A DNA stretch of 32,559 nucleotides, taken from an uncultured Lachnospiraceae bacterium. Its GTDB lineage: Bacteria > Bacillota > Clostridia > Lachnospirales > Lachnospiraceae. The translations under genes and the position numbers were made by a program. Where the stretch lies: contig CADBCZ010000033.1 in assembly GCA_902793335.1 (NCBI GenBank), positions 1-32,559 on the forward strand, read 5' to 3'. Below, piece by piece: positions 14,064-31,549 of the stretch (position 1 is its first letter; each line of letters opens with the position of its first letter). The notes below the pieces were generated by a model. It was not told the origin of the DNA and did no database searches. It saw nothing but the letters and a program-made list of their open reading frames with translations.

Positions 14064-14612
14064 CTAAATCCTCTCTCTACGTACTTCCTTAGTCAGTATC
14101 TCTCTCTTAATATATTCAAAAGTCTTCTCTTCTCCTTCTTCCGCGAGCATCGTGAGCAGCTTTTCAAGAAGTGCAGCCGATTCCTCATGGAGAAGATACT
14201 TTGATTTTCCCTTATTGTAATAATCCAACGGAAATCTGTCAGTGTATTTGTCACCATTATAATTACGACTTGCAGCTATACGGTCACAAAACATCTCAAC
14301 CACATATTTAACAGGCATCTTACAGCCTGACATGCAGTTTTTTTCAAGATCGTAATCAATCCAGTATTCCAGATGGTGTTTGTTACGACCCTTGTGATGC
14401 AACCATGCCGAAGTGTATCCCTTATCTTCACGCTCAGCGTTGTTAGGACTTCTGTCTCCCTGATAATACTTTGCACCCACAAGAAATTCAGTAGGTCCGT
14501 ATTTTGAAAGATCATGAAGAAGGCCCTGTTTGTACAATCCAAGCTTAAAACAGTACTTCATTACAAGCCATTTATGATGATTGATGGTTTTTAAATGTGA
14601 AAGCCACTTCAT
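14064..14612 (-). CDS. DUF5662 family protein
   Basis: Predicted 182 residues. The N-terminal two thirds matches my memory of DUF5662: HLKTINHHKWLVMKYC, then LLHDLSKYGPTEF with an HD pair at 33-34, then SAWLHHKGRNKHHLEYWIDY. The repeated His/Asp residues suggest a metal-dependent HD-like fold, but no activity is established for this family. AGGAG precedes the ATG. Only 13 bases separate it from dnaE, so it heads that transcript. Its own promoter was not identified; the sequence immediately upstream is the palindromic element 14649-14839. Confidence 0.85.
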   Translation of the reverse strand: MKWLSHLKTINHHKWLVMKYCFKLGLYKQGLLHDLSKYGPTEFLVGAKYYQGDRSPNNAEREDKGYTSAWLHHKGRNKHHLEYWIDYDLEKNCMSGCKMPVKYVVEMFCDRIAASRNYNGDKYTDRFPLDYYNKGKSKYLLHEESAALLEKLLTMLAEEGEEKTFEYIKREILTKEVRRERI

Positions 14613-14648
14613 ATCTGATAACTCCTAATCCTACTCAGCCTTACATCC

Positions 14649-14839
14649 TTACTTTATTTGCAGTCCTTCACACAATGCCACAAGCCATCCGCTTCGCAGA
14701 TGTCGCAGTTTCCACTGCTCTTGCTTGTGGCTTCGTGTGGAGTTCCTGCTTCGCAGTTACGATATATAATCAGATATTCGTTCGATTATGCAAGCATATC
14801 GAACTTCATCTCCGATTATATATCTACTGCAAATAGTAA
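14649..14839. repeat. Palindromic intergenic element A, with terminal inverted repeats and nested hairpins
   Basis: Ends: TTACTTTATTTGCAGT (14649-14664) against ACTGCAAATAGTAA (14826-14839). Inside, arms 14666-14685 and 14723-14742 pair over 18 of 20 positions including one G-T. They enclose GCAGT-TTCC-ACTGC (14705-14718). A second large stem is GATATATAATC (14761-14771) with GATTATATATC (14814-14824), enclosing TTCGAT/ATCGAA plus ATGC/GCAT (14781-14803). CTGC-TTC-GCAG lies between them at 14746-14756. It occupies nearly the whole 235-base gap between two minus-strand genes, starting 8 bases after the ATPase stop. No gene is present. Confidence 0.85.
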
Positions 14840-14847
14840 CATCTTTA

Positions 14848-31465: not shown

Positions 31466-31482
31466 TATATAATCGAGTAGGA

Positions 31483-31506
31483 GGGAAAATTAAATAAATT
31501 TTTCCC
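31483..31506 (-). ncRNA. Group II intron domain VI hairpin
   Basis: GGGAAAATT (31483-31491) pairs with AATTTTTCCC (31497-31506) with one bulged T, immediately 3' of domain V on the minus strand. This is the expected place of domain VI with the branch-point region. The exact branch adenosine cannot be fixed. Confidence 0.65.
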
Positions 31507-31515
31507 GACCTCTCA

Positions 31516-31549
31516 CACCACCGTACGTACGGTTCCGTATACGGCGGTT
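31516..31549 (-). ncRNA. Group II intron domain V
   Basis: On the minus strand CGCCGTA (31546-31540) pairs with TACGGTG (31525-31519). TACG/CGTA caps it with a GAAC tetraloop (31535-31532), and a CG two-base bulge lies on the 3' side (31527-31526). This is the canonical domain V shape. Confidence 0.85.

What the first reader, a model, noticed from the sequence alone, without database searches (positions are those of the whole stretch)
14649..14839. Palindromic element A: 191-base terminal-inverted-repeat structure of nested hairpins
The sequence directly shows matching ends (ATTTGCAGT with ACTGCAAAT), an 18/20 paired stem, an 11-base perfect inverted repeat with a hairpin in its loop, and two further small hairpins. 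Nearly every base is in a stem. It is not coding, and it is not a simple terminator. It begins 8 bases after one stop codon and ends just before the next gene. It could be a non-autonomous mobile element (MITE-like), a structured RNA, or an mRNA-processing element.
Basis: seen in the sequence. Interest (0 to 1): 0.7.

Follow-up and report, generated by a model that had tools for sequence, protein, structure and literature searches.

The report
A folded, jumping intergenic DNA element
The 190-base "palindromic element" looks like an old copy of a small mobile DNA element, spread among bacteria of the family Lachnospiraceae, that carries no gene yet keeps an elaborate folded shape and seems related to a known but unexplained RNA family.

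Summary
Window 14648-14840, read on the minus strand, is one copy of a dispersed non-coding element of about 193 bp. A covariance model finds it in 31 of 194 genomes searched, the window's own included.

Mobility: copies end in GTTACTATTCACAGT inverted repeats and are flanked by 8-bp target duplications. 12 of 79 are perfect and 24 of 79 match at 7 or 8 bases, against 0.00 and 0.18 expected. Gaps of 11-15 nt without the element exist in 5 of the 14 genomes with the same gene pair. The window copy has frayed ends and no duplication left (1 of 8).

Fold: 68 of 69 base pairs show compensatory change over 79 copies.

It does not pass as Rfam's Clostridiales-1 (22.2 bits; cut-off 48). Some family members share its capped arm and an internal motif, though the window copy lacks the motif. 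Clostridiales-1 copies themselves show 5-bp duplications.

No transposase partner was found. An IS4-type element first took that place, but its relatives mostly insert into these ends. A function of the fold in RNA is suggested, not shown.

The parts
14648..14840 (-). whole mobile structured element
   Evidence: covariance model R1, 156.6 bits, model positions 1-191 of 191; the window copy is one of the 30 rows R1 was built from
14826..14840 (-). 5' terminal inverted repeat, GTTACTATTTGCAGT (family consensus GTTACTATTCACAGT)
   Evidence: alignment A1
14648..14664 (-). 3' terminal inverted repeat, ACTGCAAATAAAGTAAG, frayed by a 2-base insertion
14761..14824 (-). long arm P2, capped by GCTTGC (14790-14795)
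14746..14756 (-). mini-hairpin P3, CTGCGAAGCAG, among the most conserved blocks of the family
14665..14743 (-). arm P4 with an internal branch (the arm that in 28 of 79 copies carries the T[GA]AGCA..TGCG[AC]AT motif; the motif is absent in this copy)
14705..14718 (-). small hairpin P5 within P4
14687..14701 (-). small hairpin P6 within P4
14848..16140 (-). upstream gene in the same direction: AAA_14 / DUF4143 ATPase
14064..14612 (-). downstream gene in the same direction: DUF5662 protein

Best explanation
The feature is an old, end-frayed copy of a dispersed, non-autonomous mobile element (MITE-like, about 193 bp) of Lachnospiraceae. A transposase supplied from elsewhere recognises the ends (outer box GTTACTRTTCAC) and inserts the element with an 8-bp target duplication, mostly into intergenic gaps (duplication and ends shown for the family; transposase inferred). 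In this lineage it sits in the short spacer between an ATPase gene and a DUF5662 gene, which is 11-15 nt in five relatives (shown). The body is two branched arms around a conserved mini-hairpin, and the pairing is kept across copies by compensatory change (shown). I think the fold is under selection on the source copies, most likely in the transcript read from the strand with the stronger fold (inferred, about even odds). Some members share arms and an internal-loop motif with Rfam's Clostridiales-1, so the two probably have a common folded core (inferred).
For: Copies: 3 in the window's own draft genome, the window's included; R1 matches in 31 of 194 genomes, 23 of 155 genera (the output shows 13 candidates scored per genome, so copy counts are floors); 29 of the 31 genome-contig loci given to R1, out of 37 pattern hits. 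Target duplication: 79 copies, 12 perfect 8-mers (expected 0.00), 24 at 7 or 8 of 8 (expected 0.18), no other length from 4 to 13 comparable. Sites without it: 14 genomes have the same gene pair; gap 11-15 nt in 5, 65-70 nt in 3, 120-265 nt in 6 including the window. Fold: 69 pairs, 68 with changes on both sides, 91.9% of cells paired, covariation score 0.610 against 0.178 in shuffles and at most 0.097 when slid (that alignment is fitted to the model). On the MAFFT alignment of 30 copies: 49 of 69 pairs, 89.9% paired, score 0.409 against 0.162 in shuffles. G.U cells 154 against A.C 90; P2+P3 78 against 20; on A1, P2+P3 35 against 8. Shared motif, in either of its two forms: 28 of 79 copies here, 24 of 40 Clostridiales-1 copies. 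A model built from 24 of those arms finds the matching arm in 25 of 40 Clostridiales-1 loci at E up to 1, 20 of them at E below 0.01.
Against: The window copy itself has no target duplication (1 of 8 bases) and its 3' repeat is frayed, so its own insertion is inferred from its family and from the sites without it. No clean empty site with the window's own flanks was found: the sister genome G004 has a truncated, rearranged copy and G013 only a remnant. No autonomous partner was identified. Copies lie in both orientations to the genes equally (30 against 30), which argues against a role tied to the host mRNA. G.U does not clearly exceed A.C in P1 (30 against 24) or P4-6 (46 against 46), and G-T is also more stable than A-C in single-stranded DNA (general knowledge), so the excess does not prove RNA. 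The window copy lacks the motif shared with Clostridiales-1, and R2 scores it only 11.7 bits. R2 was built from arms chosen for the motif, so mainly test that motif.
Confidence: 0.82

Rival explanations
1. A purely selfish MITE: the pairing is kept without selection, because palindromes are corrected by template switching during replication, or because each burst copies a source that happens to be well paired.
For: Target duplications, short derivatives of 77 and 98 bp with the same ends and orientation neutrality need no RNA function. Many covarying cells are shared by near-copies, and cells count sequences, not events.
Against: The GAA loop and the CTGCGAAGCAG block are nearly invariant in the 30 rows of A1, the P2 cap is exactly GCTTGC in 50 of 79 copies, and a non-standard internal motif is kept in 28 of 79; correction to perfect palindromes should erase such mismatches. 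G.U exceeds A.C in P2 and P3. The motif switches as a pair in 28 of 28 copies, 3 changes on a quick tree of which supported branches force 2.
Confidence: 0.35
2. A member of Rfam's Clostridiales-1 candidate RNA family.
For: Sub-threshold full-length matches on the right strand: window 22.2 bits, L016 34.9, L061 36.8, L194 39.9. Shared GCUUGC-capped arm and internal motif.
Against: Every family copy with a listed match is under the cut-off of 48 bits, and of 37 loci with copies scanned (L036 repeats L017) only 7 list a match that overlaps a copy (L016, L061, L186, L187, L189, L194, L214; limits E 0.1, 1 and 1). The 32.3-bit match in L024 and the 128.6-bit match in L194 lie elsewhere in those loci. 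R1 found none of the five Clostridiales-1 loci given to it (L093, L094, L103, L111, L113) at E up to 0.01. Ends differ: TGATG.. with 5-bp duplication against GTTAC.. with 8-bp. The L016 score includes flanking sequence that resembles a Clostridiales-1 3' end.
Confidence: 0.2
3. A MITE mobilised by the IS4-family element of genome G130 (L236), whose ends start with the same bases.
For: L236 1501-3248 has GTTACTATTCACAGTC at both ends, an open 471-codon frame of IS4-family transposase and an outer 7-of-8 duplication.
Against: Of seven cases whose flanks I joined, L246, L294 and L302 have an exact 10-bp duplication at CAATGTCATTTAG that lies inside the GTTAC-type end, L298 8 of 10, L300 7 of 10; L236 and L290 are mirror-flanked without it. 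That fits insertion of the IS into these ends. Two further paired cases (L251, L267) were not joined. This transposase has no match at E <= 1e-20 in G000, G004, G007 or G013, which carry the element.
Confidence: 0.12
4. A cis-acting mRNA element (processing site or stabiliser) of the ATPase-DUF5662 gene pair.
For: It lies between two genes in the same direction and would be transcribed with them. The same gap holds other structured inserts in two relatives (L127, L129).
Against: Five of 14 genomes have a gap of only 11-15 nt there. Over 79 copies the orientation to the neighbouring genes is neutral.
Confidence: 0.08

Closest known systems
Clostridiales-1 RNA (Rfam RF01699; listed in PMC2864571, of which I saw passages found by search)
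   Same: Size, P1 stem at the ends, long arm with GCUUGC loop, a second arm with the AUGAGCA..UGCGAAU motif in some members, many copies in related genomes, some copies in tandem.
   Different: Scores below the Rfam cut-off; different ends (TGATG.. against GTTAC..); 5-bp against 8-bp target duplication; a different small hairpin in a different place; the window copy lacks the shared motif.
Bacterial MITEs with strong secondary structure (Correia, ERIC, RUP, BOX; recalled, not searched)
   Same: Short, non-coding, inverted-repeat ends, intergenic, fold when transcribed.
   Different: Here a branched fold with covariation at 68 of 69 pairs and conserved loops; other hosts; no partner known.
REP / REPIN elements and the insertion sequences that target them (PMC1525189, PMC2817692, PMC3116915; listing and abstract starts seen only)
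   Same: Intergenic palindromes that serve as landing sites for insertion sequences.
   Different: REPs are short and, as I recall, tied to RAYT transposases; here the element has inverted-repeat ends and 8-bp duplications.
IS4-family insertion sequences (NCBIfam NF033592)
   Same: One copy (L236) has the family's end sequence on both sides.
   Different: The IS proper ends in CAATGTCATTTAG and makes 10-bp duplications; 5 of 7 joined cases fit insertion into a GTTAC-type end.

Membership tests
MITE | terminal inverted repeats | tested here: met
   36 copies with both ends recognised at up to 5 mismatches each; 79 R1 matches over the full model; frayed in the window copy
MITE | target-site duplication of fixed length | tested here: met
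   8 bp at family level, 12 of 79 perfect; not met for the window copy alone (1 of 8)
MITE | short, no transposase gene, dispersed copies | tested here: met
   about 193 bp; 71 of 79 copies not inside an ORF over 450 nt by a simple ORF rule
MITE | autonomous partner with the same ends | tested here: inconclusive
   no convergent pair of exact 14-base ends 1-4 kb apart in the list for 26 genus genomes; L236 ambiguous; the listing was cut
Clostridiales-1 (RF01699) | score at or above the curated cut-off of 48 bits | tested here: not met
   window 22.2; best copy 39.9
Clostridiales-1 (RF01699) | arm with AUGAGCA..UGCGAAU | tested here: inconclusive
   motif in this form in 7 and in the partner form AUAAGCA..UGCGCAU in 21 of 79 copies, not in the window copy; arm model R2 hits 25 of 40 Clostridiales-1 loci at E up to 1
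Clostridiales-1 (RF01699) | same ends | tested here: not met
   TGATG.. with 5-bp duplication, 14 of 24 perfect, against GTTAC.. with 8-bp
IS4-derived MITE | ends of the IS and of the MITE correspond and both are the cleavage ends | tested here: inconclusive
   3 exact 10-bp duplications inside the GTTAC-type end, 8 of 10 and 7 of 10 in two more, none in two, among 7 joined cases
functional non-coding RNA | transcription of the folded strand | not testable with these tools
   no expression data
REP / REPIN | associated RAYT transposase | not tested
   -

The most novel reading that the evidence does not exclude
This family and Rfam's Clostridiales-1 are two kinds of mobile structured RNA in Lachnospiraceae: one folded core (GCUUGC-capped arm plus an arm with a co-varying non-canonical internal loop) carried on different transposable ends with different target duplications (8 bp and 5 bp). 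The RNA core, not the ends, would then be what selection keeps, so the core does something for the element or its host.
Probability: 0.3. Interest if true: 0.78.

Novelty: new variant of a known kind. Interest (0 to 1): 0.52.

Why it matters
Bacterial MITEs are usually treated as inert debris, and Clostridiales-1 is one of many candidate structured RNAs for which I found no function in print. Here the two meet: a family with clear marks of transposition keeps a very strong covariation signal, and its nearest relative in Rfam also shows marks of transposition. That makes one question testable: is the fold needed for jumping, for life inside host transcripts, or for some host function?

Tried and rejected
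Autonomous partner: I first took the IS4-family element L236 as the source of the transposase. Wider sampling showed that most joined relatives inserted INTO the GTTAC ends with 10-bp duplications, so I withdrew the claim. Two other long end pairs that I checked in G130 (L191, L237) enclose host genes (a decarboxylase and a seryl-tRNA synthetase, named by eye). R1 found no copy at E up to 0.01 in the 25 IS loci.

Phage, plasmid and viral sources: no match in phages or plasmids (blastn, E 1e-5), 0 exact pattern hits in viral contigs.

Orientation-dependent cis element: rejected as a general role (genes called by a simple ORF rule, not a trained finder). Of 79 copies, 5 have no downstream gene in the stretch held and 8 were flagged as inside an ORF over 450 nt.

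Rfam matches to microRNA and other families are hairpin hits under their cut-offs (tRNA, RNase P and rRNA matches there are real neighbours). Of the 37 pattern loci, L053 and L054 have no R1 match; L032, L035, L036, L048, L052 and L057 were not given to R1 because they repeat loci already held (same sequence). A first scan of 40 Clostridiales-1 copies with fixed ends showed no clear duplication; the rule for their 3' end was set after viewing those flanks, and 16 of 40 whose end was not recognised were dropped. L028 and L199 (long inserts) and two L207 arms were left out of alignment A4.

Papers: judged by titles and abstract starts, the listings hold nothing on this family; only open-licence full texts were searched.

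Full report
WHAT IS THERE. On the minus strand it folds at -87 kcal/mol (z -10.8), and the tile that covers it is the most stable of 648 tiled windows of 193 nt. Read on that strand it starts 7 bases after the stop of an AAA_14/DUF4143 ATPase gene and ends 35 bases before a DUF5662 gene. The longest perfect inverted repeat listed inside it is 10 nt, at the ends; the 11-base one was not found.

IT IS REPEATED. blastn with the element finds two further copies in the window's own draft genome and matches in 6 of 98 searched genomes, its own included. A DNA pattern of the conserved block found 37 stretches among named species genomes, 31 of them titled Lachnospiraceae. Of 31 of these stretches given to model R1, 29 matched; L053 (Prevotella) and L054 (Planctomycetota) did not; L042 and L059 matched weakly, at about 23 bits. 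R1, built from 30 copies, matches 31 of 194 genomes, 28 of these in the window's own taxonomic family. It is absent from the phage, plasmid and viral collections at the sensitivities used.

IT MOVES OR MOVED. Copies share the end GTTACTATTCACAGT and its complement. Over 79 full copies the 8 bases on either side match perfectly in 12 and at 7 or 8 positions in 24; pairing flanks of different copies gives 0.00 and 0.18. Lengths 4-7 and 9-13 show nothing comparable. The window copy scores 1 of 8, so it is old or rearranged. The downstream gene was found in 23 of 26 genomes of the genus. In 14 the ATPase end lies directly upstream. The gap is 11, 12, 15, 15 and 12 nt in five, 65-70 in three, 120 in one, 124 (a remnant of arm P4) in G013, 151 and 214 in two that hold a different structured insert, 265 in G004 (a truncated copy plus other sequence) and 235 in the window. 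In seven further loci no ATPase end was found within 420 nt, and in three the gene start was not found.

THE FOLD IS KEPT. On the MAFFT alignment of 30 copies, 49 of 69 pairs have changes on both sides and 89.9% of cells pair. On 79 copies aligned to the model the numbers are 68 of 69 and 91.9%, with the score 0.610 against 0.178 for shuffles and at most 0.097 for slid structures; that alignment leans towards the structure. Related copies inflate such counts. G.U pairs outnumber A.C mismatches in P2 and P3 (78 to 20) but hardly in P1 (30 to 24) and not in P4-6 (46 to 46); the MAFFT alignment gives 35 to 8, 11 to 9 and 29 to 22. If only double-stranded DNA mattered, both kinds should be equally common; single-stranded DNA would also favour G-T. 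I read this as a hint of selection on the transcribed strand, no more.

A NON-STANDARD MOTIF. In 28 of 79 copies arm P4 holds T(G/A)AGCA facing TGCG(A/C)AT; shuffled letters give 0.01. G goes with A (7 copies) and A with C (21 copies) without exception. On a quick tree this needs 3 changes, of which supported branches force 2, so the switch rests on few events. The window copy lacks the motif.

RELATION TO CLOSTRIDIALES-1. Rfam's Clostridiales-1 (RF01699) matches the window copy at 22.2 bits against a cut-off of 48 (nothing at the gathering threshold). Of 37 loci with other copies scanned (one repeated), 7 list a match overlapping a copy, the best at 39.9 bits. Matches to the Rfam model are abundant in related genomes: 43 of 98 have one, 30 of 98 over the cut-off. 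They share the GCUUGC-capped arm (exact GCTTGC in 50 of 79 of our copies) and, in 24 of 40 copies read, the motif in one of its forms. Model R2, built from 24 motif-bearing arms of our family, finds the corresponding arm in 25 of 40 Clostridiales-1 loci at E up to 1, 20 of them below 0.01, all on the strand of the RNA. In 100 kb of other sequence it gave 3 matches: L239 at 36.9 bits, 30 bases from a GTTAC end and so probably a member; L242 at 23.9; and the window element at 11.7. Because R2 was trained on motif-bearing arms, this tests the motif more than the whole arm. R1 did not find the five Clostridiales-1 loci that I gave it. I therefore call the two relatives, probably, and not one family.

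CLOSTRIDIALES-1 LOOKS MOBILE TOO. A first scan with fixed ends over 40 copies from four genomes showed nothing clear. Viewing the flanks suggested a 3' end beyond a further hairpin; in the 24 copies where that end could be recognised, the 5 bases on either side match perfectly in 14 (expected 0.74, with an AT-rich background), and no other length from 3 to 10 stands out so. In the paper that lists the motif I saw only a table row and passages by search; the row gives Clostridiales and human gut.

NO PARTNER YET. An IS4-family element in G130 (L236) has our end on both sides and an open transposase frame. However, 16 places in 12 of 397 family genomes show the same kind of junction, 0 in the reversed control. 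Of seven cases joined, three have exact 10-bp duplications inside the GTTAC-type end, two have 8 and 7 of 10, and two, L236 and L290, none. Those two remain unexplained. Other IS4 relatives in the set sit in terminator-like palindromes with duplications of about 10-12 bp (read by eye), so this group seems to target palindromes.

HOW IT PROBABLY WORKS. Shown: ends, duplication, dispersal, intergenic location, maintained pairing. Inferred: a transposase acting from elsewhere; transcription as part of the ATPase-DUF5662 message; selection on the fold in RNA. Orientation to the neighbours is neutral (both genes same direction as the element 30, both opposite 30, divergent 9, convergent 5, undecided 5), so any function is more likely the element's own than its neighbours'. 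Short 98-bp forms consist of the ends plus P2. The direct repeat ACTGYGAA that brackets the rest of the element would explain them by a simple deletion (inference).

VERDICT. A family of structured mobile elements that I found neither in Rfam above its cut-offs nor in the papers searched: ordinary in being MITE-like, unusual in the strength of its fold and in its link to an orphan Rfam RNA. In the self-check I mended counts (seven loci without the ATPase end, L300 at 7 of 10, six repeated loci, 7 of 37 Rfam matches); the odds did not need to change.

Noticed in passing
L306-L345 (Clostridiales-1 copies in G052, G033, G028, G027): Rfam's Clostridiales-1 copies are flanked by 5-bp target duplications (14 of 24 perfect, 0.74 expected; 16 of 40 dropped), beyond a 3' hairpin that lies outside the Rfam match.
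   Followed up: partly
L246, L294, L298, L300, L302, L236, L290: IS4-family insertion sequences sit at a fixed place about 16 bp inside GTTAC-type ends, several with 10-bp duplications; relatives sit in terminator-like palindromes.
   Followed up: partly
L233 3001-3651; L033 106-651: Head-to-tail arrays of the element (four copies at about 160-bp and three at 180-bp spacing).
   Followed up: no
L127 and L129, gap upstream of the DUF5662 gene: The same intergenic gap holds a different structured insert with a GCTTGC-type arm in two relatives.
   Followed up: no
L190, L191, L087, L090 (98 bp); L063 (77 bp): Short derivatives with the same ends, the 98-bp ones perhaps made by deletion between ACTGYGAA repeats.
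   Followed up: partly
L239 2832-2915; L242 2547-2622: Matches to the arm model R2 outside the catalogued copies; the first lies next to a GTTAC end.
   Followed up: no
L194 3001-3197 and 4140-4292: A copy of this family and a strong Clostridiales-1 match (128.6 bits) lie about 1 kb apart.
   Followed up: no
window 31472-31549: Group II intron end (RF00029, 49.1 bits, minus strand).
   Followed up: no
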